DNA from: an uncultured Bacteroidales bacterium | GTDB taxonomy: Bacteria; Bacteroidota; Bacteroidia; Bacteroidales; UBA932 | Reading direction: 5' to 3' | DNA: 64,000 nucleotides | Assembly: GCA_905234475.1 (NCBI GenBank) | Contig: CAJOHX010000003.1 | Location: forward strand, 21,506-85,505 | In this document: positions 13,291 to 57,468 of the stretch, piece by piece | Layout of the letters: each line of letters begins with the position of its first letter | Position numbering within the stretch: position 1 is the stretch's first letter | Made by a program: the position numbers and the translations under genes | Notes under the pieces: generated by a model | Seen by the model: the letters and a program-made list of their open reading frames with translations, nothing else | Told to the model about the DNA's origin: nothing | Database searches by the model: none

Positions 13291-15750
13291 ATGGAAGAGA
13301 ATGTGAACTTGATTCTGGAGGAGTTGAACGACGAGCAGCGGCGGGCTGTGTGTTGTGTGGACGGGCCCGTGCTGATCGTTGCCGGAGCGGGATCCGGCAA
13401 GACCCGTGTTCTGACCAGCCGGGTGGCTTATATCCTTGCCTTGCAGGAAGATGCACGCGTTCTTGCCCTGACTTTTACCAAGAAGGCAGCCGGCGAGATG
13501 AAGGAGCGCATCGCCGCAATGGTGGGAGGCTACAGGCTGCGCCGGGTGGTGATGGGGACCTTCCATGCCGTGTTCGTGCGCTTCCTTCGCGAGTATGCGG
13601 GGCAGCTGGGCTATCCCGAGCATTTCACCATCTACGACACGTCCGATTCCCAGAGCGCCATCAAGGCCTGCCTCAAGGAGATGGGCCTCGACGACAAGGT
13701 CTACAAGCCGCGGGACGTGCTGGCCCGCATCTCCATGGCCAAGAACAACCTCATCACGGTCTCGGCCTACCAGGCCAGCCAGGAGCTCCAGACGCAGGAC
13801 TACCATACCAAGCGGCCGCGCCTGGGCGAGGTGTACCAGCGCTACCAGGAGAAGCTAAAGCAGAGCGGGGTGATGGACTTCGACGACATCCTGCTCAACA
13901 TGAACAAACTGCTGCACGACAGTCCGGAGGCGCTGCAGACCATCGCCGGGCGCTTCACGCACATCCTGGTGGACGAGTACCAGGACACCAACCGGGCGCA
14001 GTACCTGATCCTGAAGAAGCTTGCCCAGTATCACCGCAACCTTTGCGTGGTGGGCGACGACAGCCAGTCCATCTATGCCTTCCGCGGCGCCCGGATCGAG
14101 AACATTCTCAGCTTCAAGAAAGATTATCCGGAGTGCAAGCTCTTCCGCCTGGAGCGCAACTACCGCTCCACGCAGATGATCGTGGATGCCGCCAATTCCG
14201 TCATCGCCCACAACGAGGGGCGCATCCCCAAGGTATGCTACGCCGTGGGCGAGGCTGGGGAGCGCATCCGCATCATCAAGGCCTACACCGAGCAGGAGGA
14301 GGCGGTGATGATCGTCTCCGAGATCCAGGACCGGATGCGCCGTGCGCGGGCGCAGTATCAGGATTTCGCCATCCTGTACCGGACCAATTCGCAGTCCCGC
14401 GCGCTGGAAGAGCAGCTCCGCCGGCGCAACATCCCCTATATGATCTACTCCGGCAATTCCTTCTTCGAGCGGGCGGAGGTCAAGGACATGATGGCCTATT
14501 TCAAGCTGGTCGTCAATCCGCGCGACGACGAATCGTTCCGCCGGGTGGTCAACAAGCCTGCGCGGGGCATCGGCGACAAGGCCCTGGGGGCCGTGGAGGC
14601 CGAGGCCCGACAGCGGGGCTGCCCGCTCTTCGAGGCGGCGCAGCAGGTCCCGAAGGTGCAGGAGTTCTGCGCCATGATCGCGGACCTCGCGGCGCGGGTG
14701 CGCACCACTGACGCCTATGTGCTGGCGAAGCTGATTGCCGACCGGAGCACGCTGTACGCGTTCTATAAGCAGGATACCTCCATCGAGGGCCTGTCGCGCC
14801 TGGCGAATGTGGACGAACTCATCAACAGCGTGGAGCAGTTCGTCGAGGAGCGTACCGATGAGGCTGCCGACTATGCGGAGGAAGGGGGCGAGGTCGGGGT
14901 GTTCACCCTGGATGACTTTCTGGAGAATGTCTCCCTGCTGAGCAACGTCGACGTGGCGGAAGGGGAAGAGGACACCAACAACAAGGTCGCCCTCATGACG
15001 GCGCATTCTTCCAAGGGCCTGGAGTTCCCGTACGTGTTCGTGGCGGGGATGGAGGAGAATCTCTTCCCGAGTGTGTCCATGCTTTCCGCCAAGTCGGAGG
15101 TGGAGGAGGAGCGGCGGCTTTTCTACGTGGCCGTGACGCGCGCCAAGCGGGCGGTTGCGCTGTCGTATGCCGGGACGCGCATGCGCAACGGCAAGCACGA
15201 GTCCAACGCCCCGTCGCGTTTCCTAAAGGAGATCGATCCCCGCTTCCTGGAGAATCCGCTGGATGAGGGAGACTTTGACAATGAAGGTGTTACCCATGAA
15301 TGGGGTGGCTTCGGCAGCCGCTTCACCGGCGGCCGGCTGAATCGGTTCGGCGTTGGAAGTGGTGCTTATGGGCAGTCTTCCGGCGTGCAGCACGAACAGA
15401 AGGACGCCGGTCGGAATCGGTTTGGCCAGCAGCCCTCGAGGGGCGTAGCCACCCATGGCTTCGTAAATGGGAGGGATGAGGGGCGTAGCCCCGAACCCAT
15501 TCGAGGGCTGGCTGGCCAACCGACGACTGGCGTCCGACAAGCTTTGGCAGATGCGAACTTCGTGGGGGTGCCGATGACGGAACTGTCGGAGGGCCAGCGC
15601 ATCGAACACAACCGCTTCGGCCCCGGCACCATCCTGGAGCTCTCCGGCCGCGTCCCCGACATGAAGGCCCGCATCCGCTTCGACGCCTTCGGCGAGAAGC
15701 TCCTGCTGCTCAAATATGCGAAGATCAGGCCGCTGCCAGAGCAGAAATAA
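13291..15750 (+). CDS. uvrD: UvrD/PcrA-type DNA helicase with a palindromic insert
   Basis: Superfamily 1 3'-5' helicase for repair and replication. Motifs in order: Walker A GAGSGKT (about residue 32), VDEYQDT (about 227), GDDSQSIYAFRG (about 254), RLERNYRST, TAHSSKGLEF and VAVTRAKR. A C-terminal Tudor-like domain (EGQRIEHNRFGPGTI) ends the protein, which is typical of PcrA/UvrD. I chose the ATG at 13291 over an in-frame TTG at 13273. Residues about 704-749, in the linker before the C-terminal domain, are encoded by a 134-bp palindromic element (15402-15535). A 24-bp tandem duplication covers the stop codon. Rep or PcrA would be equally good names. Confidence 0.94.
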   Translation: MEENVNLILEELNDEQRRAVCCVDGPVLIVAGAGSGKTRVLTSRVAYILALQEDARVLALTFTKKAAGEMKERIAAMVGGYRLRRVVMGTFHAVFVRFLREYAGQLGYPEHFTIYDTSDSQSAIKACLKEMGLDDKVYKPRDVLARISMAKNNLITVSAYQASQELQTQDYHTKRPRLGEVYQRYQEKLKQSGVMDFDDILLNMNKLLHDSPEALQTIAGRFTHILVDEYQDTNRAQYLILKKLAQYHRNLCVVGDDSQSIYAFRGARIENILSFKKDYPECKLFRLERNYRSTQMIVDAANSVIAHNEGRIPKVCYAVGEAGERIRIIKAYTEQEEAVMIVSEIQDRMRRARAQYQDFAILYRTNSQSRALEEQLRRRNIPYMIYSGNSFFERAEVKDMMAYFKLVVNPRDDESFRRVVNKPARGIGDKALGAVEAEARQRGCPLFEAAQQVPKVQEFCAMIADLAARVRTTDAYVLAKLIADRSTLYAFYKQDTSIEGLSRLANVDELINSVEQFVEERTDEAADYAEEGGEVGVFTLDDFLENVSLLSNVDVAEGEEDTNNKVALMTAHSSKGLEFPYVFVAGMEENLFPSVSMLSAKSEVEEERRLFYVAVTRAKRAVALSYAGTRMRNGKHESNAPSRFLKEIDPRFLENPLDEGDFDNEGVTHEWGGFGSRFTGGRLNRFGVGSGAYGQSSGVQHEQKDAGRNRFGQQPSRGVATHGFVNGRDEGRSPEPIRGLAGQPTTGVRQALADANFVGVPMTELSEGQRIEHNRFGPGTILELSGRVPDMKARIRFDAFGEKLLLLKYAKIRPLPEQK
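15402..15535. repeat. Protein-coding palindromic element in uvrD
   Basis: Outer arms of about 36 nt (starting GGACGCC, ending GGCGTCC) pair with few mismatches, including TTGGCCAGC and AGCCCTCGA in both arms. Inside is a core hairpin, read on the minus strand: stem CCCAT/ATGGG around loop TTACGAAGCC (plus 15452-15471). The core matches those in cca and xerC. It is read through in frame by uvrD. Confidence 0.8.
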
Positions 15751-15784
15751 TTTGAAAATACAGAGCAGAAATAATTTGAAAATA
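15737..15784. repeat. 24-bp tandem duplication over the uvrD stop codon
   Basis: Two exact adjacent copies of a 24-nt unit (15737-15760 and 15761-15784). The first contains the last uvrD codons and stop. The second is the spacer before yqeY. Confidence 0.9.
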
Positions 15785-15807
15785 CATATCTGATAAACAA
15801 TTATCCT

Positions 15808-16263
15808 ATGGCACTCGAACAGCAAATCCAGCAAGACATCATGGCGGCGATGAAGGCCCACGACTATGAGCGGACCAACGCCGTGCGCGCCATCAAGTCC
15901 GCCATCCTCCTCGCCAAGACGGCGGAGGGTGGCAAGAAGGAACTTGAGGACGCCGATATCATCAAGCTCATCCAGAAGCTCATCAAGCAGCGCAAGGAAG
16001 CCGCGGAGCAGTACGTGGCCGCGGGTCGGCAGGAACTGGCCGACAACGAGCTCGCCGAGGCGAAGGTCCTCGAGGAGTACGTCCCTAAGCAGCTCACGCC
16101 CGAGGAGATTACGGAGCGCGTCCGTGCCATCATCGCGCAGGTCGGCGCCAGCTCCCCGTCCGACATGGGCAAGGTGATGGGCGTTGCCAGCAAGCAGATG
16201 GCCGGCCTTGCCGACGGCCGCACCCTTTCCACTATCGTCCGTGAACTCCTGGCCCAGGGATGA
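15808..16263 (+). CDS. GatB/YqeY domain-containing protein
   Basis: Stand-alone YqeY protein related to the tail domain of the amidotransferase subunit GatB, thought to interact with tRNA. Its exact role is not established. The family signature is clear: an N-terminal helical block (ALEQQIQQDIMAAMKAHD, then RAIKSAIL), a central EQY/EYVPKQLT segment and a C-terminal DMGKVMGVASKQMAG block. 151 aa, normal length. Its TGA stop overlaps the ATG of the Nif3-like gene (ATGA), so the two are likely coupled. Confidence 0.93.
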   Translation: MALEQQIQQDIMAAMKAHDYERTNAVRAIKSAILLAKTAEGGKKELEDADIIKLIQKLIKQRKEAAEQYVAAGRQELADNELAEAKVLEEYVPKQLTPEEITERVRAIIAQVGASSPSDMGKVMGVASKQMAGLADGRTLSTIVRELLAQG

Positions 16264-17036
16264 GGCTGCGGGAGATTATTGCCGCACTGGAGCGTCTCGC
16301 TCCGCTGCGGCTGCAGGACGAGTGGGACAACTCGGGCCTGCAGGTCGGTTTCCCGGAGTCGGAGATCTCCGGGGTCCTGGTGTGTCTTGATGTGACGGAA
16401 ATTATTGTCGCAGAGGCGATTGCTAAAGGGTGCAACCTGATTGTCTCCCATCATCCGCTGCTTTTCAAGGCGCTTCGGCAGGTGTCGGACGCGACCTACC
16501 AGCAGCGTTGCGTGGTGCAGGCGCTCTCCGCCGGAATCTCCATTTATTCCGCCCATACCAGCCTGGACAATGCCCCCGGCGGGGTCAACCACAAGATTGC
16601 CGGACTCCTGGGTCTGGAGAATCTGCGCTGGCTCGCGCCCATGGCGGGAGAGGAAGCCGGATCGGGCCTGGTCGGCGAACTGCCGGTCCCCGAAACCGAC
16701 AAGGATTTCTTCGCCCGCGTGAAGCAGCTGTTCGGCGTGGAGAGCCTGCGGCATTCCGCCCTGGACGGGCGGGAAATCCGGCGCGTGGCCCTCTGCGGCG
16801 GCGCCGGCGCATTCCTGCTGGGCGATGCCGTCCGCGCAGGAGCCGACTGTTTCCTCAGCGGCGAATTCCATTACCATGATTATTTCGAGACCGGCGGCAT
16901 GCTGCTCTGCGAGCTGGGCCACTACCAGAGCGAGCAATACACGCAGGACCTGCTGCAGGACTATCTGGCAGCGGAGTTCCCGTCCCTGCACATAGAGCGT
17001 ACCGCATTCAACACCAATCCGATCTGCTATGATTAA
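16260..17036 (+). CDS. Nif3-like dinuclear metal-centre protein
   Basis: Member of the Nif3/YbgI family, which forms a hexameric ring with a dinuclear metal site. The physiological role is uncertain, with GTP cyclohydrolase-like activity proposed for some members. Metal-binding residues visible: HHP in NLIVSHHPLLFKAL (about residue 62), the AHTSLDNAPGGVN block (about 98), and GHYQSEQY near the C-terminus. At 258 aa it is the short form, without the PII-like insertion found in many homologues of about 365 aa. It overlaps the genes on both sides (4 and 8 nt). Confidence 0.9.
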   Translation: MRLREIIAALERLAPLRLQDEWDNSGLQVGFPESEISGVLVCLDVTEIIVAEAIAKGCNLIVSHHPLLFKALRQVSDATYQQRCVVQALSAGISIYSAHTSLDNAPGGVNHKIAGLLGLENLRWLAPMAGEEAGSGLVGELPVPETDKDFFARVKQLFGVESLRHSALDGREIRRVALCGGAGAFLLGDAVRAGADCFLSGEFHYHDYFETGGMLLCELGHYQSEQYTQDLLQDYLAAEFPSLHIERTAFNTNPICYD

Positions 17037-17778
17037 GCTGGACGACAAGTTCTCCGAAGAGACCCTGGCCACCTGCTACATGGTGGACTGCCGCAAATAC
17101 CTGCGCCCGAGTGCCTTTTTGGACATGGCGCAGCACATGGCCGTGTTCGGCGCGGACCGGCTCGCCTTCGGTGACGACCAGCTCGGCCCGCATGGCTGCG
17201 CCTGGGTGGTCGCGCGGCAACATGTCCGCTTCGAGCGTCCGTTCCTCCATAAAGAGAAGGGACGTGTCGTGACCTGGCACAAGGGACTCCAGGGCCTGTT
17301 TTTCCTACGTGATTATCTGCTGCTGGGCGTCGATGGCGAGCCCGCCGTGCGCTCTACCAGTTCCTGGGTGGTGATGAACATCGCCGAGCGCCGCGTCGTG
17401 CGGCCCGATTTTCTGACGGAGTTCGTCTCCATGGAGCCGCAAAGCACGGACCACGCCATCGAGGAGCCTGCTGCCAAGGTCGTACTGCCCCGCGAGGCGG
17501 AGATGACGCAGATTGGCGCGCACCGCGTGCAGTTCTCCGACGTGGACTACAACCACCACGCAAACAATGTGAAGTATACCGCTTGGGCGATGGATGCGCT
17601 TCCTGAAGAGTTGGTTTATAATAAACTCCTTAAAGAACTGACCATCAACTTTAACCGCGAGGCGCGCCCCGGCGAGACTGTGACTCTCTGGCATGCCCTT
17701 GCGCCCGACGGCGCCCACATTATCGAGGGTCGCGTAGACGACCATCAGGTGTTCATCGAAAAGCTGCTGTTCCAGTGA
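17029..17778 (+). CDS. Acyl-ACP thioesterase
   Basis: Hydrolyses acyl-ACP to end fatty-acid synthesis. Double hot-dog fold of the plant FatA/FatB-like bacterial family. The N-terminal half carries YLRPSAFLDMAQHMA and GCAWVVARQHVRFERP. The second half has the catalytic-site region DVDYNHHANNVKYTAWAMD (about residue 168), matching the N-x-H pattern of this family. 249 aa, normal for bacteria. It starts inside the last codons of the Nif3-like gene, and its stop overlaps the GTG start of the next gene. Confidence 0.9.
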   Translation: MIKLDDKFSEETLATCYMVDCRKYLRPSAFLDMAQHMAVFGADRLAFGDDQLGPHGCAWVVARQHVRFERPFLHKEKGRVVTWHKGLQGLFFLRDYLLLGVDGEPAVRSTSSWVVMNIAERRVVRPDFLTEFVSMEPQSTDHAIEEPAAKVVLPREAEMTQIGAHRVQFSDVDYNHHANNVKYTAWAMDALPEELVYNKLLKELTINFNREARPGETVTLWHALAPDGAHIIEGRVDDHQVFIEKLLFQ

Positions 17779-18758
17779 TCGCATTGCGGAAATCCACGCT
17801 GCTCGCCTGCACGCTCCTTTTCTCGATAACCATGTCGGGCGGGCCGGCAGATTCCGATTATTCCCGTTTTGTAAGAAGGAGCCTGGACCGGACGGACTAT
17901 CGGTATTGGAGCCTCATCTCCGAACTCCCTCCTACGGAAGCTGTCTGGCCGGGAGACCGGGTTACGGTTCCCTTCAAACAGCTTGGGCAGCCGGGACACA
18001 CCCTGTACGGGGTTGAAGTCTCGGTCAATGGCCGGGAACTGACCGGAAGCCTGGACAACTGTGCATCGGATTACTGCGAGACTTCCCCGGAGATCGCTGA
18101 AGCGCTGGGTATCAGGCCGATAGGAAAGAAGATCAAGATCAACGGAAACAGACGCGCGCAATCGTATATCGGAATCGCCGATTCGCTGTCGCTGGGAGAC
18201 CTGGTCGTCAGGAATGTGCTGTTCTCCGTGTCCGATTCCTTCGTCTCGATCGGCGAGGCTCTCTCCATCGATCTGGTCATCGGAGACAACGTGTTCCGCC
18301 AGACAGGCGATCTGATTATCGACAACACAGAGGAAAGCGTCACCTTCTCGAGGTACACGCTGGATCTGTGCCCCAATGTCCTTCGGGCTTATCCGGAACA
18401 CGATTACTACGTCGAGGCATCCCAGGACGGAAAGGAGGTGATGATGCTCCTGGATTTCGGCAATACGAATACGTACATGAACGTACGCTTCGTCGAGAAA
18501 TACCCGCCAGATGAGCCTTATGCCGAATCCACGACCCGGATTACCATGCAGGACCGGACCTGGACGACGAAATCCTACCTCATGGAGAAGCCGCGCTTTG
18601 AGCTGTTTGGCACGGCATGCGAATGGGACCGGATCGATATCTGGCTGGAGGGCTATGGCGGGAGGCGGGGCCTCGGGAGTTTCGGCGCGGATATGCTCCG
18701 TCAGTACAGGCTTGTCGTCTTCAATGCCCGGCAGCAGTACCTGCAGTTGACAAGGTAG
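17775..18758 (+). CDS. Retropepsin-like protein lacking the canonical DTG motif
   Basis: Probable exported protein with an N-terminal hydrophobic segment (LLACTLLFSITMSG). Two retropepsin-like halves can be recognised: VEVSVNGRELTGSLDNCASDYC (about residues 79-100), where the DTGAS loop would be, and a second lobe VMMLLDFGNTNTYMN (about 223-237). The final LGSFGADMLRQYRLVVFNARQQYLQL block is typical of bacterial retropepsin-like proteins. Both loops lack the D-T/S-G triad (LDN and DFG instead), so an active protease is doubtful. The start is GTG overlapping the thioesterase stop. The fold assignment is my inference from the motif pattern. Confidence 0.6.
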   Translation: MIALRKSTLLACTLLFSITMSGGPADSDYSRFVRRSLDRTDYRYWSLISELPPTEAVWPGDRVTVPFKQLGQPGHTLYGVEVSVNGRELTGSLDNCASDYCETSPEIAEALGIRPIGKKIKINGNRRAQSYIGIADSLSLGDLVVRNVLFSVSDSFVSIGEALSIDLVIGDNVFRQTGDLIIDNTEESVTFSRYTLDLCPNVLRAYPEHDYYVEASQDGKEVMMLLDFGNTNTYMNVRFVEKYPPDEPYAESTTRITMQDRTWTTKSYLMEKPRFELFGTACEWDRIDIWLEGYGGRRGLGSFGADMLRQYRLVVFNARQQYLQLTR

Positions 18759-18761
18759 TTC

Positions 18762-18840
18762 ATCCAGAAAACCCCGGGTGTTTCTGGTCAATGTGGCCTA
18801 TTTGCAAGGGGTTGTCCAGGATTCCCGGGGTTTTCTGGAT
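18762..18840. terminator. Perfect 17-bp inverted repeat between convergent genes
   Basis: ATCCAGAAAACCCCGGG (18762-18778) and its exact complement (18824-18840) flank a 45-nt spacer in the gap between two convergent genes. The left arm can also fold locally with GGGTGTTTCTGG. There is no long U-tract. It may act as a bidirectional terminator, or be a small MITE-like repeat. I cannot decide from one copy. Confidence 0.5.
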
Positions 18841-18856
18841 GATAATCTTTCAGTGG

Positions 18857-21079
18857 TTATTTCATCCAACGGTCCAGCCAGTCGTAGAAGACGCGGTGCC
18901 AGTAGAGGGAGTTCTGCGGCTGGAGGATCCAGTGGTTCTCTTCGGGGAAGACCACGAGCTTGGAGGGGACACCCATCATCTGGGCGGCATTGAAAGCCGC
19001 CATGCCCTGCTCGTAGGGGATGCGGTAGTCCATCATGCCGTGGATGCAGAGGATCGGGGTGTGCCACTTCGTGACCATGCCGGAAGGGGAGTTGGCGTAG
19101 TGGCGCTGTGCCTTGGGCGTGCTGGCATAAGGCGCACCGGCCTGCTGCATGCCGCCGAAGGTGATCCCGTCACGGGCCGGGCCGATGCCCAGGGCCGGGT
19201 CGTAGGCGTACTCGGTCAGGCCGCCGTTGTCCCAGTTGGCAAACCACATCTCCTCGGTGGTGAACCAGAGCTGCTTCTCGTCGAAAATGCCGGCGTGGGC
19301 GATGAAACAGTCGTAGAGGTCGCCGTGCAGGCCCTCGAGCATGTAGGCGGAGTAGCCGCCGTAGGAGGCGCCCACGCAGGCGAGTTTATTTACGTACGGT
19401 TGGCCCTTGATGTAGCGCCCGGCGCTGAGGTAGTCCTGCATGTTGAGTCCCGGGTAGTCGCCGGAGATCTGCTCCTTCCAGGCCTGGCCGAAGGCGGTGG
19501 TGCCGCGGCGGTTCGGGAGGATGACGATATAGCCCTGCTGGGCCATCAGGCGGTAGCACCAGCGGTAGCTCCAGTCCTGCGAATTGGAGCCCTGCGGGCC
19601 TCCGAGCACGATTTCGATGGCCGGGTACTGCTTCGCCGGGTCGAACTGCGGGGGATAGAGGACCCAGCAGAGCATCTGCTGGTGGTCCACCGTCTCCACG
19701 AACACACGCTCGTCGCGCACGTCCGCAAGCTGATCGAAGATGTGCTGGTTCTCATGGGTAATCTGCTCGAAGCTGACGCCCTCCTCGGTAATCATCACGG
19801 AGACGAGCTCAGTGGGGAATTTCAGGCAATAGTAGGAGGCGAGCAGCTGCACGCCGTCCTTGCGGTCCAGTACGGCGAAGGGGGAGAAGAAGTCGAAATC
19901 CCAGTCCGGCGCGGTGATGCGCTGGGCGTCGCCGCCCAGGTCGGCGCAGTAGAGCGCCTGGATGCCCTCGCCCACGAGGGTGTTGAAGAAGAGCTCGTTG
20001 TTGTGCCACACCAGGTCGGCCACGTCGTGGTCGAAGTCCGGCAGCAGCTCGCGGATATTCTGTACGCGCAGGCCGAAGTTCTGCCCGTCCGCTTCATCTT
20101 CAAGCGATTCGACGTCAGCGACAAACAGGCGCTGGCGGTCGGCCTCGTAGCCGTCGCGCTCCATGGAGATCCAGGCGATGTGGCGGCCGTCGGGGCTCCA
20201 GACGGGGGAGGCGTCGTAGCCGCCGTCGGTCTTGACATCGAGGGTCTCGCCCGTGAGGATGTCATAGATGTAAATCCCGCAGTTGGTGCTGAAGGCGTAC
20301 TGCTTGCCCGTCTTCTTGCGGCAGGAATACACGATGTGGCGGCCGTCCGGCGCCCAGTCCAGCTGCTCTGCGCCGCCGAAAGGCTCGGTCGGGAGCTCGA
20401 ACAGGTTGTCGGTGCCGAGGATGTCCACGGAATTCTCCGGGGTGATCTGCTTCTTGCCGAGCGCTGCCACGTAGGTGCGCGGGACTTCGGTCACCCAGTG
20501 GTCCCAGTGGCGGTACATCAGGTCTTCGGTGGCGTAGGCCTGCGCCTTGTCCAGGGCGGGATCGCTGTCCGCAGGCTGCTGGAGGGCGGTGTTCTTGATG
20601 CTGCTTACGTAGAGCACCTGGGTCTGGTCCGGGGAGAGCTTGAAGTCGCTGATCCCGGCGGGGACGTCGCTGAGCTGCACCCGCTTGCCGAGTTTATTGC
20701 CCTTGAGCGGAGCCTTCCAGAGCTGTCCGCCCTGCAGGAAATAGATGCTCTTGCCGTCCAGGCTCCAGCGGGCGCCGCTGACGCTCTTGGCGTAGCGGGT
20801 GAGCTGGACCTTGTCGCTGCCGTCGGGGTTGCAGAGGAACAGGTTGCGGCAGCTGCGGTTGTCGGGGATGGAGGTATAGGAGACGCCGTACAGGATCCGG
20901 CTCCCGTCGGGGGAGAGCTGGGGATCGGACAGGCGGCCGAGGGCGAGCAGCGTCTCGGGGGTCATCACGCCGTCCTCGATCTGGATCCCGGACGGGCCGA
21001 TGTAGCCGCTGCCCTCATCTTTCTGGGTGCAACTGATAGCCATAACAAGACAGGTAATAGCGATGAATACTCGTTTCAT
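18857..21079 (-). CDS. S9-family prolyl-oligopeptidase-like lipoprotein
   Basis: Exported serine peptidase of the prolyl oligopeptidase/dipeptidyl-peptidase family. It starts with a lipoprotein signal (MKRVFIAITCLVMAISC), has an N-terminal beta-propeller with WD40-like repeats (LSPDGSRILYG, WSLDGKSIYF, WAPDGRHIVYS, WSPDGRHIAW), and ends with an alpha/beta-hydrolase domain. The nucleophile is in GASYGGYS (about residue 568), with acid and base candidates in GMMDYRIP (about 683) and ENHWIL (about 713). 740 aa from the chosen ATG at 21079; an upstream in-frame ATG would only add a poor leader. It is divergent from recG. Substrate unknown. Confidence 0.9.
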   Translation of the reverse strand: MKRVFIAITCLVMAISCTQKDEGSGYIGPSGIQIEDGVMTPETLLALGRLSDPQLSPDGSRILYGVSYTSIPDNRSCRNLFLCNPDGSDKVQLTRYAKSVSGARWSLDGKSIYFLQGGQLWKAPLKGNKLGKRVQLSDVPAGISDFKLSPDQTQVLYVSSIKNTALQQPADSDPALDKAQAYATEDLMYRHWDHWVTEVPRTYVAALGKKQITPENSVDILGTDNLFELPTEPFGGAEQLDWAPDGRHIVYSCRKKTGKQYAFSTNCGIYIYDILTGETLDVKTDGGYDASPVWSPDGRHIAWISMERDGYEADRQRLFVADVESLEDEADGQNFGLRVQNIRELLPDFDHDVADLVWHNNELFFNTLVGEGIQALYCADLGGDAQRITAPDWDFDFFSPFAVLDRKDGVQLLASYYCLKFPTELVSVMITEEGVSFEQITHENQHIFDQLADVRDERVFVETVDHQQMLCWVLYPPQFDPAKQYPAIEIVLGGPQGSNSQDWSYRWCYRLMAQQGYIVILPNRRGTTAFGQAWKEQISGDYPGLNMQDYLSAGRYIKGQPYVNKLACVGASYGGYSAYMLEGLHGDLYDCFIAHAGIFDEKQLWFTTEEMWFANWDNGGLTEYAYDPALGIGPARDGITFGGMQQAGAPYASTPKAQRHYANSPSGMVTKWHTPILCIHGMMDYRIPYEQGMAAFNAAQMMGVPSKLVVFPEENHWILQPQNSLYWHRVFYDWLDRWMK

Positions 21080-21106
21080 GATGCGGTCATTCTGGTAATA
21101 GGATTG

Positions 21107-21114
21107 CAAATGTA
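21107..21114 (-). promoter_or_regulatory. Candidate -7 box of the S9 peptidase gene
   Basis: TACATTTG on the minus strand matches TAnnTTTG and lies 27 nt upstream of the chosen ATG. No clear -33 box at the right distance. Confidence 0.45.
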
Positions 21115-21137
21115 ATAAAAATCGGCCGGATTTTTCG

Positions 21138-21145
21138 TATATTTG
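21138..21145 (+). promoter_or_regulatory. Candidate -7 box of recG
   Basis: TATATTTG, a perfect TAnnTTTG, ends 5 nt before the recG ATG. This supports the start at 21151 and implies almost no untranslated leader. Confidence 0.55.
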
Positions 21146-21150
21146 TAGGT

Positions 21151-24980: not shown

Positions 24981-24982
24981 TC

Positions 24983-25531: not shown

Positions 25532-25580
25532 TTGTTTTGTTGGTTTAGAGTTAAAATCATGTAAATATAGGAAAAAAATA

Positions 25581-46587: not shown

Positions 46588-46612
46588 CTTTCAAATTATT
46601 TTTATTAACTTA

Positions 46613-47230: not shown

Positions 47231-47242
47231 ATCCAAATTATT

Positions 47243-47638: not shown

Positions 47639-47663
47639 CCCATCCTGAGTTTGCTGAAGAATC

Positions 47664-47702
47664 TCCGCCATCGTCCCCAGTCCGGACGATGGCGGATTTT
47701 TT
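47664..47702 (+). terminator. Strong intrinsic terminator before the arabinose operon
   Basis: Perfect 13-bp stem TCCGCCATCGTCC / GGACGATGGCGGA (47664-47676 and 47684-47696) with a 7-nt loop and six Ts. It separates the glycosidase unit from the galM-ara unit. Confidence 0.93.
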
Positions 47703-47725
47703 AAAGGAAAAAGTGGATTTATTGC

Positions 47726-47768: not shown

Positions 47769-47792
47769 GAAAAAAAGTTATCTTTACGCAAT

Positions 47793-48878: not shown

Positions 48879-48899
48879 TCAACAAAATACGTGTCAACT

Positions 48900-50595: not shown

Positions 50596-50598
50596 TCT

Positions 50599-51327
50599 AT
50601 GCTTGAAGAACTGAAAGAAAAGGTGTGCCGGGCCAATCTTGATCTGGTCCGGCACGGCCTTGTCATTTTCACCTGGGGAAATGTCTCCGCCATTGACCGC
50701 GCCAGCGGCCTGGTGGTCATCAAGCCCTCCGGCGTGAGCTACGACAACATGAAGCCGTCCGACATGGTCGTGGTGGACCTGGACGGCAAGGTGGTGGAAG
50801 GGGAGTTGAACCCTTCGTCCGACACCCCGACGCACGTGGAGCTTTACAAGGCTTTTCCGAACATCGGCGGTGTGGTGCACACCCATTCGACCTTCGCCAC
50901 GGCCTGGGCGCAGGCAGGGGAGGACATTCCCCGGCTGGGCACCACCCATGCGGACTATTTCCATGACGCCATCCCCTGCACGCGCAGCATGAAGAAGTCG
51001 GAAGTCTTCGGCGAGTATGAGAAGGAGACCGGCCGCGTCATCATCGAGCGCTTCAAGGACATGAACCCGGACGACACGCCCGCCGTGCTGGTCAGAAACC
51101 ACGGCCCCTTCGCCTGGGGTACGGACGCCGACAACGCCGTCCACAACGCCGTGGTGCTGGAGGAGGTGGCCAAGATGGCCTACCTGGCCGTCGACATCCA
51201 CGTCGCCGCCCAGTTCAAAGGCATCTACCTGGCGGATTTTTCGCCCAGGATGAACAAATACCTCATCGAAAAGCACTACAGCCGCAAGCATGGCCCGGGC
51301 GCCTACTACGGCCAGAAAAAGAAATAA
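50599..51327 (+). CDS. araD: L-ribulose-5-phosphate 4-epimerase
   Basis: Class II aldolase-fold enzyme that converts L-ribulose 5-phosphate to D-xylulose 5-phosphate. Substrate phosphate-binding TWGNVSAID and [10 protein letters not shown] (about residues 25-50), zinc ligands in [10 protein letters not shown] (about 93-96) and the later NHGPFAWG (about 170) are intact. The EHYSRKHG-like C-terminus ([16 protein letters not shown]) is the family ending. 242 aa, normal length. It lies between the symporter and araA. Confidence 0.95.
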
Positions 51328-51356
51328 ACAACAACCACATTAAAACTCATAACGAA

Positions 51357-52892
51357 ATGGCATTTGAAAATTGCGAATTATGGTGGGTGACCGGTGCGCA
51401 GCTCCTCTACGGAGGTGACGCCGTCGTCGCCGTGGACGGACATTCCAAGGAGATGGTCGAGGGCCTGAACGCCTCCGGCAACATCCCCGTGAAGATTGTG
51501 TATAAAGGCACGGCCAACAGCAGCCGCGAGGTCGAGGCCGTGATGAAGGCTGCCAACAACGAGCCGAAGTGCGTGGGTGTCATCACCTGGATGCACACCT
51601 TCTCCCCGGCCAAGATGTGGATCAAGGGCCTCCAGGCCCTGGAGAAGCCGCTTCTCCACTTCCACACCCAGTACAACGCCGAGATCCCCTGGGACAAGAT
51701 CGACATGGACTTCATGAACCTCAACCAGAGCGCCCACGGCGATATCGAGTACGGTCACATCTGCACCCGCATGCGCATTCAGCGCAAGGTCGTGGTCGGC
51801 TACTGGAAGGATGAGGCCGCCCAGAAGCAGATTGCCGTGTGGGCCCGCGTGGCCGCCGGCGTGGCTGACGCCAAAAACGTCCGCTGCCTGATGTTCGGCA
51901 TGAACATGAACAACGTCGCCGTGACCGACGGCGACCGCGTGGAGTTCGAGCAGCGTCTGGGCTACCATGTGGATTACTACCCGGTTTCCTCCCTGATGGA
52001 ATACTACAAGAAGGTCACTGACGCCGAGACCGACGCCCTGGTGGAGGAGTATAAGAAGCTCTACACCGTCAAGATTGACGAGACGGGCGAGAAGGTCTAC
52101 TGGGAGAAGGTGCGCAATTCCGCGAAGGCGGAGATTGCCCTGCGCCGCGTCCTGAAGGACGAGGGTGCCACGGCCTTCACGACCAATTTCGACGACCTCG
52201 GCGACGCCGACGTCGATGCCCCGGATTTCTGCGGCTTCGACCAGATCCCGGGCCTGGCCTCGCAGCGCCTCATGGAGGAGGGTTACGGCTTCGGCGCCGA
52301 GGGCGACTGGAAGACCGCCTGCCTGTACCGCACGCTGTGGGTGATGTCCCAGGGCCTGCCGACGGGCTGCTCCTTCCTCGAGGACTACACCCTCAATTTC
52401 GCGGGAGACAAGAGCTCCTGCCTGCAGAGCCACATGCTGGAGATCTGCCCGATGATCGCGAGCGACAAGCCCAAGCTGGAGGTCCATTTCCTCGGCATCG
52501 GCATCCGCAAGCAGCCCACCGCCCGTCTGGTCTTCACCTCGAAGACCGGCCCCGGCATCAAGGCCACGGTGGTGGACCTGGGCAACCGCTTCCGCCTCAT
52601 CGCGCAGGATGTGGAGTGCATCGAGCCCAAGCCGATGCCCAAGCTCCCCGTCGCCTCCGCCCTCTGGGTCCCGCAGCCGACCTTCGAGGTGGGCGCCGGC
52701 GCCTGGATCCTGGCCGGCGGCACGCACCATTCCGCGTTCAGCTATGACATTACGGCCGACTACTGGGACGATTTCGCCGAGATGACCGGCATCGAGTTCG
52801 TCCACATCAACAAGAACACCACCATCCCCGAGTTCAAGAAGGAACTCAAGATGAACGAGGTGTATTACATGCTCAACAAGGCGCTCAAGTAA
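51357..52892 (+). CDS. araA: L-arabinose isomerase
   Basis: Mn2+-dependent isomerase from L-arabinose to L-ribulose. Opening ENCELWWVTGAQLLYGGDAV, the MHTFSPAKMWIKGLQALEKPLLHFHTQYN substrate block, ILP-type YWKDEAAQKQIAVWARVAAG, the VDAPDFCGFDQIPGLASQRLMEEGYGFGAEGDWKTA metal-site region with its glutamates, and the C-terminal ILAGGTHHSAFSYD with a metal-binding His. 511 aa, complete. It starts 29 nt after araD and is followed by araB after 3 nt. Confidence 0.97.
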   Translation: MAFENCELWWVTGAQLLYGGDAVVAVDGHSKEMVEGLNASGNIPVKIVYKGTANSSREVEAVMKAANNEPKCVGVITWMHTFSPAKMWIKGLQALEKPLLHFHTQYNAEIPWDKIDMDFMNLNQSAHGDIEYGHICTRMRIQRKVVVGYWKDEAAQKQIAVWARVAAGVADAKNVRCLMFGMNMNNVAVTDGDRVEFEQRLGYHVDYYPVSSLMEYYKKVTDAETDALVEEYKKLYTVKIDETGEKVYWEKVRNSAKAEIALRRVLKDEGATAFTTNFDDLGDADVDAPDFCGFDQIPGLASQRLMEEGYGFGAEGDWKTACLYRTLWVMSQGLPTGCSFLEDYTLNFAGDKSSCLQSHMLEICPMIASDKPKLEVHFLGIGIRKQPTARLVFTSKTGPGIKATVVDLGNRFRLIAQDVECIEPKPMPKLPVASALWVPQPTFEVGAGAWILAGGTHHSAFSYDITADYWDDFAEMTGIEFVHINKNTTIPEFKKELKMNEVYYMLNKALK

Positions 52893-52895
52893 GCC

Positions 52896-54488
52896 ATGGA
52901 CGCAAGACAAACCATCGAATCCGGCAAGGCCGTCCTCGGCATCGAGTTCGGCTCGACCCGCATCAAGGCGGTGCTGGTGGACGAAGACCACGTCCCCATC
53001 GCCCAGGGCAGCTACGAGTGGGAAAACCAGCTCGTGGACGGCCTTTGGACCTATAGCAAGGAAGTGATCTGGTTCGGCCTGCAGCAGTGCTATGCCGACC
53101 TGCGCGCCGACGTGCGCAAGCGCTACGAGGTGGAAATCGAGCACCTCGCCGCCATTGGCATCAGCGCGATGATGCACGGCTACATGCCGTTCAACAAGGA
53201 GGGACACCTGCTGGTCCCGTTCCGCACCTGGCGCAACACCAACACCGGTCCCGCCGCGGCGGAGCTCTCCAGGCTGTTCGTCTACAACATCCCGCTCCGC
53301 TGGAGCATCTCGCACCTGTACCAGGCCATCCTGAACAACGAGCCGCATGTCGAGAACATCGGCTTCCTGACCACCCTTGCCGGCTACATCCACTGGAAGC
53401 TCACCGGCGAGAAGGTGCTAGGCGTGGGCGACGCCTCCGGCATGCTGCCCGTGGACCCCGATACCGGCAACTACCGCGCGGACATGATCGAGAAATTCGA
53501 GGCCCTCGTGGCGCCGAAGCGGTTCCGCTGGAAGCTGCGCGACATCCTCCCGAAGGTCCTGAAGGCCGGCGAGCCGGCCGGCCGCCTGAGCGAAACGGGC
53601 GCCAAGCGCCTGGACGTCTCCGGCCATCTGCAGGCCGGCGTTCCGCTCTGCCCGCCGGAAGGCGACGCAGGCACCGGCATGGTGGCGACCAACGCCGTCA
53701 AGCCGCGCACGGGCAACGTCTCTGCCGGCACGTCCTCGTTCTCCATGATCGTCCTGGAGAAGGAGCTGTCCAAGCCCAACGAGATGATTGACATCGTCAC
53801 GACGCCGGACGGCAACCTCGTCGCGATGGTCCACTGCAACAACTGCACGTCGGAGCTCAACGCCTGGGTGAAGATGCTCCGCGAGTACCAGTATCTGCTG
53901 GGCCCCGTGGAGGACAAGCACGACATCTACCGCACCCTGTACACGCACGCCCTGGAGGGCGATCCCGACTGCGGCGGCCTGGTGGCGTTCAACTACATCT
54001 CCGGCGAGCCGGTCACGGGATTTGCCGAGGGACGTCCGCTGTTTGTCCGCGGAGCCAATGACAATTTCACGCTGGCGAACTTCTTCCGTGCCCAGCTGTA
54101 CGGCTCCATCGCCGTGCTGAAGATCGGCAACGATGTGCTGTTCAACGAGGAGCATGTCAAGGTGGACCGCATCACCGGCCACGGCGGCCTGTTCAAGACC
54201 CCGGTCGTGGGCCAGCGCTTCCTGGCTGCCGCCCTGAATTCGCCGATCTCCGTGATGGAGACGGCGGGCGAAGGCGGCGCCTGGGGCATCGCCCTGCTGG
54301 CTTCGTACCTGGTGAACAACGGCGGCAAGCTCAGCCTGCCCGACTTCCTGGACAAGATCGTCTTCGCCGGCAACGCCGGTTCGGAGATCGCTCCCGTCCC
54401 GGAGGACGTCGCGGGGTTTGAGGCCTACCTGGCCAACTACCAGGCGGCTTTCCCCATCGAGGAGGCCGCGGTGCGCTGCAAGAAATAG
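52896..54488 (+). CDS. araB: FGGY-family ribulokinase
   Basis: Carbohydrate kinase that would phosphorylate L-ribulose. The N-terminal ATPase motif [14 protein letters not shown] (about residues 14-27), the [15 protein letters not shown] block (about 87), [24 protein letters not shown] and the C-terminal [20 protein letters not shown] are typical of the FGGY group found in Bacteroidota arabinose operons. 530 aa. The distance from classical Escherichia AraB means a xylulokinase-like annotation is also possible; the position after araA decides for ribulokinase. Confidence 0.88.
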
Positions 54489-54494
54489 TTTGCG

Positions 54495-54896
54495 ATGGAG
54501 CAGATCTGGGACCCGCTCCGCAAAATGATGGTCACTGCCACACCCGAAGAACGGGTGCGGCAGTGGTTTATCATGCAGCTCCGCGACGCGTTCGGCGTGC
54601 CGGAGCACATGATGCGCAGCGAGGTGGGGTTCCGCTACGGGAAAAAGCCCTGGCGGGCCGATATCGTGGTGTATGACCGTGCGGGCGCCCCGCTGCTGGT
54701 CACGGAGTGCAAACGGCCCGACGTACCCCTGGACGAAAAGGTCCTCCGGCAGGCCATGCGCTACAATTCCGTGCTGTCGGTGCGGTTTCTGGTGGTGACA
54801 AACGGAAATTTGACGTATCTTTACAGGCTGGAAGGGGACGTGTTCGTCCCGTGCGACCGCATCCCCGCCTATGAAGAGATGGTATGCCAACGATAA
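54495..54896 (+). CDS. Stand-alone HSDR_N-type nuclease-fold protein
   Basis: Small protein equivalent to the N-terminal domain of type I restriction HsdR subunits. It contains a PD-(D/E)xK core: YGKKPWRADIVVYD with Asp (about residue 56) and PLLVTECKRPDV with E-x-K (about 72), then a helix with EKVLRQAMRYNSVLSVRFLVVTNG. 133 aa. Such proteins are common in Bacteroidota without a restriction system nearby, and their role is unknown. It starts 6 nt after araB, and its end overlaps the start of cca by 13 nt. Confidence 0.8.
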   Translation: MEQIWDPLRKMMVTATPEERVRQWFIMQLRDAFGVPEHMMRSEVGFRYGKKPWRADIVVYDRAGAPLLVTECKRPDVPLDEKVLRQAMRYNSVLSVRFLVVTNGNLTYLYRLEGDVFVPCDRIPAYEEMVCQR

Positions 54897-56437
54897 CCCC
54901 GCAGTTTCTGGACCGGCCGGTCTTCCGGCTGCTCTCGGAGGTGGCCGCCGAGAAGGGCGTGCGCGCCTTCGTGATCGGCGGCTTCGTGCGTGACTGTTTC
55001 CTGGGCCGCTCCTGCAACGACATTGACGTCGTGGTGGAGGGCAGCGGGATCGATTTCGCCCGGGCGGTGGGGGAGCGGACGCACCAGCATGTCTCTTATT
55101 TCAAGAATTTCGGGACGGCAATGCTGCACTACCGCGGCGACGAACTGGAGTTCGTCGGCGCGCGCAAGGAGTCCTATCGCCGCGAGTCCCGCAAGCCCAT
55201 CGTGGAGGACGGCACCCTCGAGGACGACCAGCTGCGCCGGGATTTCACCATCAACGCCATGGCCTTCTCCCTCCAGAAAGAGGATTTCGGGGCGCTGGTG
55301 GACCCGTTCGGCGGCATCCGCGACCTGGATGCCGGCATCATCCGCACGCCGCTGGATCCCGATACGACCTATTCCGACGATCCGCTGCGCATGCTTCGCG
55401 CCGTGCGCTTCGCCACGAAGCTCTCCACGCCGGAGCGCACTTTTACAATCGTCCCGGAGTCAATGGCGTCGATGCGGCGCATGGCCGACCGGCTGAAGAT
55501 CCTCTCCTGCGAGCGGATCGCCGAGGAGCTTAACAAGATGCTCCTGACGGACCGCCCCGCCATGGCGTTCCGCCTGATGGACGAAGCGGGCCTGCTGCCC
55601 TACGTCCTGCCGGAGCTCCTCGCCCTCAAGGGCGTCGAAACCGTCGACGGCAAAGGGCATAAAGATAACTTCGCACATACGCTCGCTGTCCTTGAAAACG
55701 TTGTAGCCGTGCAGAGCGAAATGTCCGGAAGTCCCTCCGGCAAAACCGTGGCCGCCCGTGGTCTCGTGAACGGGGGGGACCCGCTGCGAAGCAGTGGGGG
55801 GGCTGAGCGAAGCGAAGTTTTGCAGGAGGGAGCTTCCGGACATGAGCCATTGTGGCTTCGCTGGGCGGCGCTGCTGCACGATATCGGGAAGCCGGCGAGC
55901 AAGCGCTACGACGCGGCGCAGGGCTGGACTTTCCACGGCCACGAAGTGGTCGGCGCCCGCATGGTGCCGAAGATCTTCGACCGCCTGCGGCTGCCCCTCG
56001 ACGAGATGAAATACGTCCAGAAGCTGGTCCGGCTGCATCTGCGGCCGATCGCGCTGGTGGACGAGGAGGTCACGGATTCGGCCGTGCGCCGGCTGCTTTT
56101 CGACGCCGGCGACGACATCGACGACCTGATGACGCTGTGTAATGCCGACATCACCTCGAAGAACGAGGCGAAGGTGGCGCGGATCCGCGCCAATTTCGAG
56201 TTGGTGAAGCGCAAGCTCGTGGAGGTGGAGGAGAAGGATGCAATCCGCAATTTCAAGAATCCGATCGACGGCAATTATGTCATGAAGGTCTACGGGATTC
56301 CGCCCTGCTCGGAGATCGGGCAGCTCAAGGAGCTGGTCAAGGAGGCCATCCTGGACGGGGTGATCGGCAATAATTTCGAGGAGGCGGACGCCTTTATGCG
56401 GCAGCACGCCGCCGAGTTCGGCCTGCACGAAGTATGA
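54884..56437 (+). CDS. cca: CCA tRNA nucleotidyltransferase with HD domain and palindromic insert
   Basis: Class II nucleotidyltransferase that adds or repairs the tRNA CCA end. Visible: GGFVRDCFLGRSCNDIDVVVEG with the DxD metal pair (about residues 32-52), RRDFTINAMAF (about 119), LRAVRFATKLS, and an HD domain with LRWAALLHDIGKPA (about 326). Residues 280-320 are encoded by a 123-bp palindromic element (55721-55843) inserted codon-exactly between VVAVQSE and PLWLRWAALLHDIG, where homologues join directly. This brings the protein to 517 aa instead of about 475. It overlaps the genes on both sides. Confidence 0.93.
   Translation: MPTITPQFLDRPVFRLLSEVAAEKGVRAFVIGGFVRDCFLGRSCNDIDVVVEGSGIDFARAVGERTHQHVSYFKNFGTAMLHYRGDELEFVGARKESYRRESRKPIVEDGTLEDDQLRRDFTINAMAFSLQKEDFGALVDPFGGIRDLDAGIIRTPLDPDTTYSDDPLRMLRAVRFATKLSTPERTFTIVPESMASMRRMADRLKILSCERIAEELNKMLLTDRPAMAFRLMDEAGLLPYVLPELLALKGVETVDGKGHKDNFAHTLAVLENVVAVQSEMSGSPSGKTVAARGLVNGGDPLRSSGGAERSEVLQEGASGHEPLWLRWAALLHDIGKPASKRYDAAQGWTFHGHEVVGARMVPKIFDRLRLPLDEMKYVQKLVRLHLRPIALVDEEVTDSAVRRLLFDAGDDIDDLMTLCNADITSKNEAKVARIRANFELVKRKLVEVEEKDAIRNFKNPIDGNYVMKVYGIPPCSEIGQLKELVKEAILDGVIGNNFEEADAFMRQHAAEFGLHEV
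55721..55843. repeat. Protein-coding palindromic element in cca
   Basis: Outer arms of 26-27 nt: ATGTCCGGAAG, then CCCTCC, then GCAAAAC, repeated inverted at 55817-55843. The core hairpin, read on the minus strand, has stem CCCGT/ACGGG and loop TCACGAGACC (plus 55755-55774). It is 123 nt long, exactly 41 codons, with no stop in the cca frame. Confidence 0.85.
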
Positions 56438-57468
56438 TCGAGCGCTACCTGACATACCTCTCCTCCGTCCGCCGCTATTCTCCCCGTACCATCGAAATCT
56501 ACCGCGGTGTCCTCGAGGATTTTCTTTCGTTTACGACGCGGCACGGCGAACTGCCTCTGGAAACGTCCGGCTGCGCCGGACCCCTCCCATCTGACGATGG
56601 GCCCCTCCCTCTTACGATGCCGAGGGTGGCACGGTTTCCTGAGGCAGTTGCCGATGCCGCGTCGCTGCAAGAAATCCTCACGGTTCAAGGTGTACGTTCT
56701 TATGAGGTGTACCTGATGGATGAGAGGGGGGAGGGGGCGAGGACGGTGAGCCTGCATATGAGCGTGCTGAGCGGGTTTTGCAAGTATCTCGTGCGGCAGG
56801 GGGTGCTGGAGAGCAACCCGGTGCGGCTGGTGGCGCGGCCGAAGCAGGAGAAGCGCCTGCCGGTGTTCTACCGGGACGAGTCGATGAAGGCGTATTTCGA
56901 GCAGACCAAAGGGGTGCTCGAGTATGGGAAATATGAGGACCAGCTGCAGCGGATGATCCTGGGGGTGCTGTTCGGGACCGGGATTCGCCGGAGCGAGCTG
57001 ATTTCGCTCAACCGGAGCTCCGTGGACCTGTCGCGGCGGGTGCTGCGCGTGCGGGGCAAAGGGGATAAAATGCGGGAAATTCCCCTGCTTCCTTCGCTTT
57101 GTGAGGAAATATTGCTATATTTACGTGCAGTTGACTCTTTGAAATGCGCGGATACGACCCCGGACGCGCCGCTCCTGCAGACGCCGAGAGGCGGGCGGCT
57201 CTATCCGGTCTACGTGGACCGGGCGGTCAAGGCGGCCCTCGGACCCGTGGACGGCATCAGCGGCAGGAAGTCCCCGCACGTCCTGCGCCACACGCTGGCC
57301 ACGGAGCTGCTGGACGGGGGCGCGGACCTCAATTCCATCAAGGAATTGCTGGGCCACAGCTCCCTGGCGGCGACCCAGGTCTACACGCACAATTCCATCG
57401 AGCGGCTGCAGAGTGTATACAAATCCGCCCATCCAAGGGCAAAAAACGATGATAACCATGGAGATTAA
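56434..57468 (+). CDS. xerC: XerC/XerD-type tyrosine recombinase with palindromic insert
   Basis: Site-specific recombinase, probably for chromosome dimer resolution. N-terminal core-binding domain (YLTYLSSVRRYSPRTIEIYRGVLEDF), then the catalytic domain with Arg in FGTGIRRSELISL (about residue 185), Lys in RVRGKGDKMREIPL, H-x-x-R in HVLRHTLATELL (about 285), His in LGHSSLAATQ and the nucleophile Tyr in VYTHNS (about 323). Residues about 38-73 come from a 108-bp palindromic element (56545-56652), which explains 344 aa against the usual 295-305. It starts at ATGA overlapping the cca stop. Confidence 0.92.
   Translation: MIERYLTYLSSVRRYSPRTIEIYRGVLEDFLSFTTRHGELPLETSGCAGPLPSDDGPLPLTMPRVARFPEAVADAASLQEILTVQGVRSYEVYLMDERGEGARTVSLHMSVLSGFCKYLVRQGVLESNPVRLVARPKQEKRLPVFYRDESMKAYFEQTKGVLEYGKYEDQLQRMILGVLFGTGIRRSELISLNRSSVDLSRRVLRVRGKGDKMREIPLLPSLCEEILLYLRAVDSLKCADTTPDAPLLQTPRGGRLYPVYVDRAVKAALGPVDGISGRKSPHVLRHTLATELLDGGADLNSIKELLGHSSLAATQVYTHNSIERLQSVYKSAHPRAKNDDNHGD
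56545..56652. repeat. Protein-coding palindromic element in xerC
   Basis: Outer arms GGCGAACTGCCTCTGGAAAC and the inverted copy ending GAGGCAGTTGCC (56634-56652) pair with one mismatch and one bulge. The core hairpin has stem CCCTC/GAGGG and loop TTACGATGCC (56607-56626). A second similar hairpin, CCCAT/ATGGG (56587-56602), lies next to it. It is 108 nt long, 36 codons, without a stop in frame. Confidence 0.85.

What the first reader, a model, noticed from the sequence alone, without database searches (positions are those of the whole stretch)
15402..56652. Family of in-frame, protein-coding palindromic elements with a covarying core hairpin
Three elements of 134, 123 and 108 bp lie inside uvrD, cca and xerC. 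Each is one large inverted repeat with a common inner hairpin. Read in one orientation the cores are CCCTC-TTACGATGCC-GAGGG (xerC), CCCAT-TTACGAAGCC-ATGGG (uvrD, minus strand) and CCCGT-TCACGAGACC-ACGGG (cca, minus strand), each followed by YGGC. The two variable stem bases change together on both sides (TC/GA, AT/AT, GT/AC), which is compensatory change and argues for a selected structure. The loop keeps TYACGANRCC. The outer arms are unrelated between copies. All three are read through without a stop and enlarge the host protein. This resembles Rickettsia palindromic elements in behaviour, but the sequence looks distinct and the host is a Bacteroidales-type genome. I know of no described counterpart.
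Basis: partly seen in the sequence, partly recalled or inferred. Interest (0 to 1): 0.93.

Follow-up and report, generated by a model that had tools for sequence, protein, structure and literature searches.

The report
Flipping mobile palindromes inside bacterial genes
In uncultured gut bacteria of the Bacteroidales, a repeated family of roughly 100-base palindromic DNA elements sits inside ordinary genes without closing their reading frames, is predicted to add about 35 to 45 amino acids to each protein, lies turned around in place in one gene between related species, and likely spreads as a folded single strand of DNA.

Summary
The three window elements belong to a family with 18 model hits in this genome and hits in 34 of 37 genomes of the genus (this one included), but in only 3 of 149 genomes sampled across the order at a stricter cut-off. 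The core is a conserved structure: 23 of 30 pairs show compensatory change in 103 sequences, including a second helix that crosses the first. Homologues without the insert exist, and near-identical cores sit at unrelated sites, so the elements have inserted repeatedly.

Three things go beyond the finding. (1) Wobble pairs and GNA/GNNA loops point to the opposite strand and to very stable DNA hairpins. (2) The arms, and at one site the flanking host codons, stay complementary while their sequence changes. (3) In a FAD-protein gene the whole element lies inverted in place between species, frame open both ways; xerC shows a similar but less decisive case.

Best explanation: a Rickettsia-palindrome-like mobile element that likely moves as folded single-stranded DNA, with arms rewritten and cores flipped by hairpin-templated copying. 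The mobilising enzyme is unknown.

The parts
15417..15523 (-). Element 1 in uvrD: palindrome of arms plus core; lacks hairpin B
   Evidence: inverted repeat I6; CM hit 15428-15512, 46.8 bits; sequence
15448..15471 (-). Conserved core hairpin C of element 1 (CCCATTTACGAAGCCATGGGTGGC)
   Evidence: exact core match G000:C3:36953-36976, shifted by 21505
55721..55843 (-). Element 2 in cca: 123-nt palindrome, absent from cca of G008 and G015
   Evidence: CM hit 55731-55832, 88.6 bits; sequence; empty homologues L201/L202
55751..55774 (-). Conserved core hairpin C of element 2 (CCCGTTCACGAGACCACGGGCGGC)
   Evidence: exact core match
56534..56664 (+). Element 3 in xerC: arms of 31 nt, hairpins A, B, C; predicted to encode a low-confidence coil at about residues 38-73
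   Evidence: inverted repeat I1; CM hit 56549-56649, 83.9 bits; AlphaFold2 pLDDT about 30 there, whole model weak
56607..56630 (+). Conserved core hairpin C of element 3 (CCCTCTTACGATGCCGAGGGTGGC)
   Evidence: exact core match
13273..15750 (+). Host gene uvrD (825 codons, frame open through element 1)
   Evidence: PF00580, PF13361
54884..56437 (+). Host gene cca (517 codons, frame open through element 2)
   Evidence: PF01743, PF12627, PF01966
56434..57468 (+). Host gene xerC (344 codons, frame open through element 3)
   Evidence: PF00589, PF02899

Best explanation
These are copies of a small, apparently non-autonomous mobile palindrome, found mainly in one Bacteroidales genus, that has inserted into genes and intergenic DNA and likely moves as a folded single strand of DNA. 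Anatomy (shown): two complementary arms of about 20 nt enclose optional hairpin A, optional hairpin B and a conserved hairpin C whose loop also pairs with the bases just after it. Insertion (shown by empty homologous sites and near-identical cores at unrelated places): copies add about 35 to 45 codons and leave the frame open in either orientation. Strand (inferred from wobble pairs and loops): the active fold is on the strand complementary to CCCNNTYACGANRCC. Arms (shown: complementary but variable; inferred: cause): the strand folds back during replication and the polymerase copies one arm from the other, which keeps the palindrome perfect, carries it outward into host codons, and sometimes switches strands so that the interior is turned around. 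In-place inversion between species is shown for one gene; that template switching causes it is inferred. The enzyme that makes new copies is unknown.
For: Copies: 18 in this genome at E<=0.01; 34 of 37 genomes of the genus, 0 of 24 from other families in that sample. Structure: 91.0% of 3023 cells paired against 69.2% shuffled and 38-46% with slid partners; 12 of 12 arm pairs, 5 of 6 hairpin-B pairs, 2 of 5 hairpin-C pairs and 4 of 7 pairs of the crossing helix have changes on both sides (the alignment was fitted to the model for all but the crossing helix). Mobility: cca insert absent in G008 and G015; the FAD-protein insert lies between residues that are neighbours in P0126/P0135/P0139; 47 pairs of near-identical cores at different sites, flank similarity near background beyond about 30 nt. 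GNA/GNNA mini-hairpins are described as very stable in DNA (PMC4686876, passages). Concerted arms: complementarity 30-55 nt outside the core exceeds the 95th percentile of mismatched pairs in 14 of 38 high-GC and 6 of 41 low-GC elements; at the FAD site the outer palindrome in host codons is species-specific, 0 of 20000 permutations. Inversion at the FAD site: L332 against L327 aligns 132/166 inverted, 114/185 as is, with both 150-nt flanks as is at 122/154 and 118/154 (the other three pairs agree). Supporting case in xerC: L223 against L159, 150 nt at 90% inverted inside a linker whose two flanks match as is at 87% and 86%.
Against: GNA triloops also occur in RNA (recalled), so loops do not exclude an RNA fold. 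No transposase was identified. Outer complementarity is missing in more than half of the elements and weaker in xerC (4 of 10 above the cross-species 95th percentile) and rnr (1 of 4); even at the FAD site only 3 of 12 single loci pass that cut-off, though the mean is high. Inversion rests on one gene: in xerC the rest of the linker is not recognisably inverted (130 of 1000 shuffles do as well), so two separate insertions of close copies remain possible there, and the other opposite-orientation pairs of the 68 compared show no clear inversion. At the GltD-like site none of the 4 relatives recovered carries an element. Insertions are shown by diverged homologues, not by isogenic strains; target-site duplication is unsettled. 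Short native inverted repeats at two targets (FAD, xerC) could mean that the element prefers palindromic targets. The two crossing helices are hard to fit in one classical pseudoknot because one linking loop is a single base; they may be alternatives.
Confidence: 0.57

Rival explanations
1. A structured RNA element (regulatory or ribozyme-like) that acts in the transcript and was spread by duplication.
For: Strong covariation with a crossing helix, as in structured RNAs; many copies outside genes in low-GC species, 42 of 51.
Against: Intragenic copies lie in both orientations to the host ORF (22 same, 17 opposite), so no one RNA strand is always made; no Rfam family reached its gathering score in the window; loops are mostly GNA triloops and non-GNRA tetraloops; in-place inversion at one gene.
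Confidence: 0.12
2. A REP/MITE-like repeat mobilised in trans by a RAYT (Y1 HUH) transposase.
For: Y1_Tnp matches in 46 of 61 genomes, 2 weak ones in G000, one a 303-aa ORF; REPs inside genes such as uvr genes and DNA polymerase I are in print (PMC3733652, passages); a HUH enzyme would act on a folded single strand.
Against: 8 of the 34 congeners with copies have no Y1 match at E<=0.001, among them G013 (96% complete, 13 copies), G014 (70%, 15) and G001 (74%, 11) (counted by hand; incompleteness weakens this); no element at E<=1 within about 1.5 kb of 6 Y1 loci, one of them cut at 0.5 kb by its contig end; no common GTAG or CGTC end tag.
Confidence: 0.2
3. Intragenic invertible segments (invertons) switched by a dedicated site-specific recombinase acting on the arms.
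For: In-place inversion at the FAD gene and a similar case in xerC; at five host genes of G000, 13 of 24 recovered gene-genome pairs in five relatives are occupied, 5 in the same and 8 in the opposite orientation (counted by hand).
Against: The arms differ between loci while the interior is conserved, the reverse of what a recombinase reading the arms would need; many copies are intergenic.
Confidence: 0.13
4. Arms stay complementary through selection on the fold alone, without templated copying.
For: The arms take part in the conserved fold: 12 of 12 pairs compensatory.
Against: Complementarity continues into unique flanks 30-55 nt out in part of the copies, and in orthologous copies several adjacent bases differ together on both sides (rnr L270 and L276; FAD L332 and L328).
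Confidence: 0.25

Closest known systems
Rickettsia palindromic elements (RPE)
   Same: 105-146 bp palindromes inserted in frame into many unrelated genes, one host protein shown to be made and active; also intergenic (PMC2229807, passages)
   Different: Other phylum; composite core with up to three hairpins and a crossing helix; locus-specific arms that change in concert; in-place inversion; strand signature for DNA hairpins. Sequence was not compared directly with RPEs.
GTAG/CGTC REP repeats and RAYTs
   Same: Palindromic, dispersed, sometimes inside repair and replication genes (PMC3733652, passages); possible single-strand chemistry
   Different: REPs are 20-40 bp with a fixed end tag; these are about 100-130 bp with no common tag and no element beside the 6 Y1 loci looked at
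Bacterial MITEs (Correia/NEMIS, ERIC, RUP)
   Same: Small, apparently non-autonomous, can be read as protein (PMC2229807, passages)
   Different: Terminal inverted repeats only weakly shared between copies; no clear target-site duplication
Intragenic invertons (recalled; only a search listing was seen)
   Same: Inversion of a segment inside an open frame between inverted repeats
   Different: Here the segment is a dispersed repeat and its repeats differ between loci; switching within one population was not shown

Membership tests
Rickettsia palindromic elements | Palindrome of about 105-146 bp | tested here: met
   107, 123 and 131 nt in the window
Rickettsia palindromic elements | In-frame insertion into unrelated protein genes, also intergenic copies | tested here: met
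   12 of 15 G000 copies have an open frame of more than 300 codons through the element (two of these ORFs have no Pfam match); 39 of 96 classified copies intragenic
Rickettsia palindromic elements | Sequence homology to RPE families | not tested
   No RPE sequence was fetched
Rickettsia palindromic elements | Host protein with the insert is made and active | not testable with these tools
   Only that the frame stays open and XerC residues R185, H282, R285, H308 and Y317 are invariant in the 35 aligned sequences
GTAG/CGTC REP | 20-40 bp hairpin with GTAG or CGTC at one end | tested here: not met
   Core ends vary (TTCG, GTCC, TACG, TAAA); elements are about 100-130 nt
GTAG/CGTC REP | RAYT gene flanked by the repeats | tested here: not met
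   0 CM hits at E<=1 around 6 Y1 loci of four genomes
MITE | Terminal inverted repeats shared by copies | tested here: not met
   Arms share about 20 nt weakly among near-identical copies and little otherwise
MITE | Target-site duplication | tested here: inconclusive
   A possible 3-nt repeat in xerC but not in the FAD gene
Intragenic inverton | Inversion in place with the frame open both ways | tested here: met
   Between species at the FAD site; xerC case not decisive
Intragenic inverton | Both orientations within one population, switched by a recombinase | not testable with these tools
   No reads were available

The most novel reading that the evidence does not exclude
A self-templating, invertible single-stranded-DNA transposon that lives inside proteins: it inserts as a folded single strand, is copied arm-on-arm at replication forks so that it rewrites the neighbouring host codons into its own palindrome, and flips in place often enough to give each host protein two alternative loops.
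Probability: 0.27. Interest if true: 0.92.

Novelty: new variant of a known kind. Interest (0 to 1): 0.75.

Why it matters
It shows that protein-coding palindromes, best known from Rickettsia, arose as a large family in an abundant group of gut and rumen bacteria. It gives many natural copies with empty, filled, decayed and inverted alleles, in which the old question of how such palindromes move and stay palindromic can be tested. If the templated-copying reading is right, a short palindrome can rewrite the host codons beside it and switch a protein loop without a recombinase.

Tried and rejected
Rfam: no family at gathering score in the window. Phage carriage: 1 stretch in the viral collection, not read, so phages are not the main carrier. 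Autonomous copy: for 15 elements with weak or missing 5' arms I looked for the 5' arm further upstream; only chance-level 8-10 nt matches, and six of the 15 have under 130 bases upstream, so they test little. Y1 transposase as mobiliser: no clear association. Precise target rule: not settled. G-quadruplex idea (four invariant or nearly invariant CCC tracts): noted, not tested; two sequences break two tracts. AlphaFold2 model of XerC: pTM 0.39, used only to say that the insert is low-confidence coil. xerC as a second proof of inversion: first taken as decisive, then lowered; for that reason the odds of the best explanation, the inverton rival and the novel case were lowered by 2-3 points each. 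Literature: 8 searches; none of the listings names this family, which is a statement about those searches only.

Rows dropped: 13 of 137 pattern instances lacked the following ACG and were set aside; several are unrelated organisms (Hymenobacter, Planctomycetota, Aureimonas and others) and a few look like real variants. One search classified 96 of the 124 kept (score under 20, contig-edge and duplicate copies left out). One search used 79. A1 holds 42 of the 84 candidate stretches, chosen by me; A3 holds the 104 CM matches in 100 loci chosen by me. In one search my pattern read the loop in 59 of 120 FAD homologues (recounted). Of the six host genes joined, polA matched but its loci were not among those fetched and was not analysed.
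Full report
What was checked. The window lies in a 2.31-Mb, 53-contig genome (86% complete) of a Bacteroidales genus with more than 400 held genomes. The three elements are real and lie in uvrD, cca and xerC.

Copy number. The core pattern has 13 exact and 2 one-mismatch copies in this genome; a further 16 hits have three mismatches, and the reversed control pattern gives 10 hits at up to three mismatches and none exact. The covariance model finds 18 hits here at E<=0.01, and hits in 34 of 37 genomes of the genus, this one included (1 to 46 each; at most 64 candidates per genome were scored, so high counts are lower bounds and a single weak hit may be chance), and none in 24 genomes of other families. 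In a sample of the order at the stricter E<=1e-8, 3 of 149 genomes have hits: this one, another genus of the family, and one genome of another family; one further congener in that sample has none. One stretch was found among viral contigs.

Anatomy. On 103 sequences 91.0% of cells pair, shuffled 69.2%; all 12 arm pairs change on both sides; hairpin C is 99.8% paired with two freely compensating pairs; and the loop CGANRCC pairs with the downstream GGCNACG in a helix that crosses hairpin C, with compensatory changes in 4 of 7 pairs and an A.A mismatch at one. The alignment was fitted to a model that contains the arms and hairpins B and C but not the crossing helix, so the counts for the former lean towards them. 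The base Y of the loop and the Y after GGG are the same base in 99 of 103 sequences (C-C 60, T-T 39). I cannot say whether the two helices form together or alternate.

Which strand. If the fold acts on one strand, wobble pairs should be G.T on that strand. The loops agree: on the minus strand 49 of 75 distinct triloops are GNA and 12 of 22 tetraloops GNNA, on the plus strand 4 and 0, while hairpins in flanking DNA are symmetric; 90 of 97 are closed by C-G. PMC4686876 (passages read) describes mini-hairpin DNAs with a GNA or GNNA loop and at least two G-C pairs as extraordinarily stable. This is why I favour folded DNA over RNA, together with the lack of a fixed orientation to transcription.

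Where they sit. Of 96 classified copies, 39 are intragenic by a simple ORF call. In high-GC loci (57.5% GC or more, such as this genome) it is 30 of 45 (67%), near the 78% of random positions; in low-GC loci 9 of 51, against 74%. Intragenic copies face with the host ORF in 22 and against it in 17. Host genes in this genome by Pfam: UvrD, CCA enzyme, XerC, DNA polymerase I, RNase R, RsmF-type and SpoU-type methyltransferases, DsbD, a GltD-like oxidoreductase and a FAD-dependent protein; two further long ORFs had no Pfam match. In all, 12 of 15 copies here lie in an open frame of more than 300 codons.

Empty and filled sites. cca of G008 and G015 lacks the insert. The FAD-protein insert lies between residues that are adjacent in three listed homologues...APAD|RPAL... 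(the loop was read in 59 of 120 listed). XerC shows empty, filled and decayed linkers among 120 listed homologues of 8000 scored. For five host genes of this genome whose sites were recovered in up to five relatives, 13 of 24 gene-genome pairs are occupied, 5 in the same and 8 in the opposite orientation; the GltD-like site holds no element in all 4 recovered (counted by hand). Such sharing is not expected of random insertion and means recurrent insertion into permissive loops, inversion in place, or both.

Arms. Near-identical cores at different sites share arms weakly for about 20 nt on each side and are near background beyond about 30 nt (47 pairs). Yet the element's own two flanks remain complementary further out: 30-55 nt from the core in 14 of 38 high-GC and 6 of 41 low-GC elements, where 5% is expected. 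At the FAD site the outermost complementary stretch lies in host codons, differs between species and is matched within each, for instance TGCCATTTCCTCAGCTTC in L328 and CCGCCGCTTC with its flanks in L332 (own mean 20.7 against 13.5 across species; 0 of 20000 permutations reach it; single loci above the cross-species 95th percentile: 3 of 12). In xerC (4 of 10) and rnr (1 of 4) the effect is weaker. In rnr the copies L270 and L276 differ by a block of adjacent bases on both sides at once (read by eye).

Inversion in place. At the FAD site L332 and L326 carry the element in one orientation, L327 and L328 in the other, with the frame open through it in each. The 161-164-nt segment aligns 132/166 when inverted and 114/185 as is (L332 against L327; the other three pairs agree), while the 150-nt flanks align as is at 76-82%, the same identity as the inverted segment; asymmetric arm features move with the segment. 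In xerC, L223 and L159 share a 150-nt block at 90% in inverted orientation, inside linkers of 218 and 215 nt whose flanks match as is at 87% and 86%. There the rest of the linker is not recognisably inverted (130 of 1000 shuffles score as well), so separate insertions of close copies are possible. The remaining opposite-orientation pairs among the 68 compared give no clear inversion signal.

Mechanism. The reading that needs fewest parts is: a new copy inserts as a folded single strand (inferred; enzyme unknown); afterwards, whenever the palindrome folds at a replication fork, the polymerase can copy one arm from the other, which repairs and extends the palindrome, or switch strands, which inverts the interior (inferred; quasipalindrome template switching is known in E. 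coli, recalled). Rivals are scored separately. The Y1/RAYT candidate is not excluded: 8 of 34 congeners with copies lack a match, but most of these genomes are incomplete, and the 6 Y1 loci examined have no element nearby.

Known or new. In-frame palindromes are known from Rickettsia and, as REPs, from other phyla (PMC2229807 and PMC3733652, passages read). None of 8 literature searches listed this family. I therefore call it a new variant of a known kind: the family, its crossing-helix core, its DNA-hairpin strand signature, its concerted arms and its in-place inversion are what is new.

Noticed in passing
L320:1509-2420 (G000:C31): A RAYT-like 303-aa ORF with an NHVHF motif; the nearby ORF at L320:24-923 contains the peptide CHSERSEES, which I recall as the product of another coding repeat.
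   Followed up: partly
G013:C2:64, 369 and 675: Three core copies spaced about 305 bases apart, as if the element sits in a tandem repeat.
   Followed up: no
L088, L115: Elements whose hairpin-B region is replaced by a different module of about 60 nt with its own hairpin, before the core.
   Followed up: no
L052, L126, L154: Flanks share an AT-rich outer sequence like GATTATCCGCAAAATTACC, perhaps a second repeat around the element.
   Followed up: no
L255/L264 (GltD-like gene of G229): A GC-rich insertion at the same loop that does not look like this element.
   Followed up: no
A3 columns 137 and 153: The loop pyrimidine and the pyrimidine after GGG are the same base in 99 of 103 sequences, a covariation that is not Watson-Crick.
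   Followed up: partly
window 47650-47710: A 27-nt inverted repeat with 7-nt spacer at the edge of an ORF; could be a terminator.
   Followed up: no
window 7058-7111: A 25-nt inverted repeat with 4-nt spacer that is not a member of this family by the covariance model.
   Followed up: no
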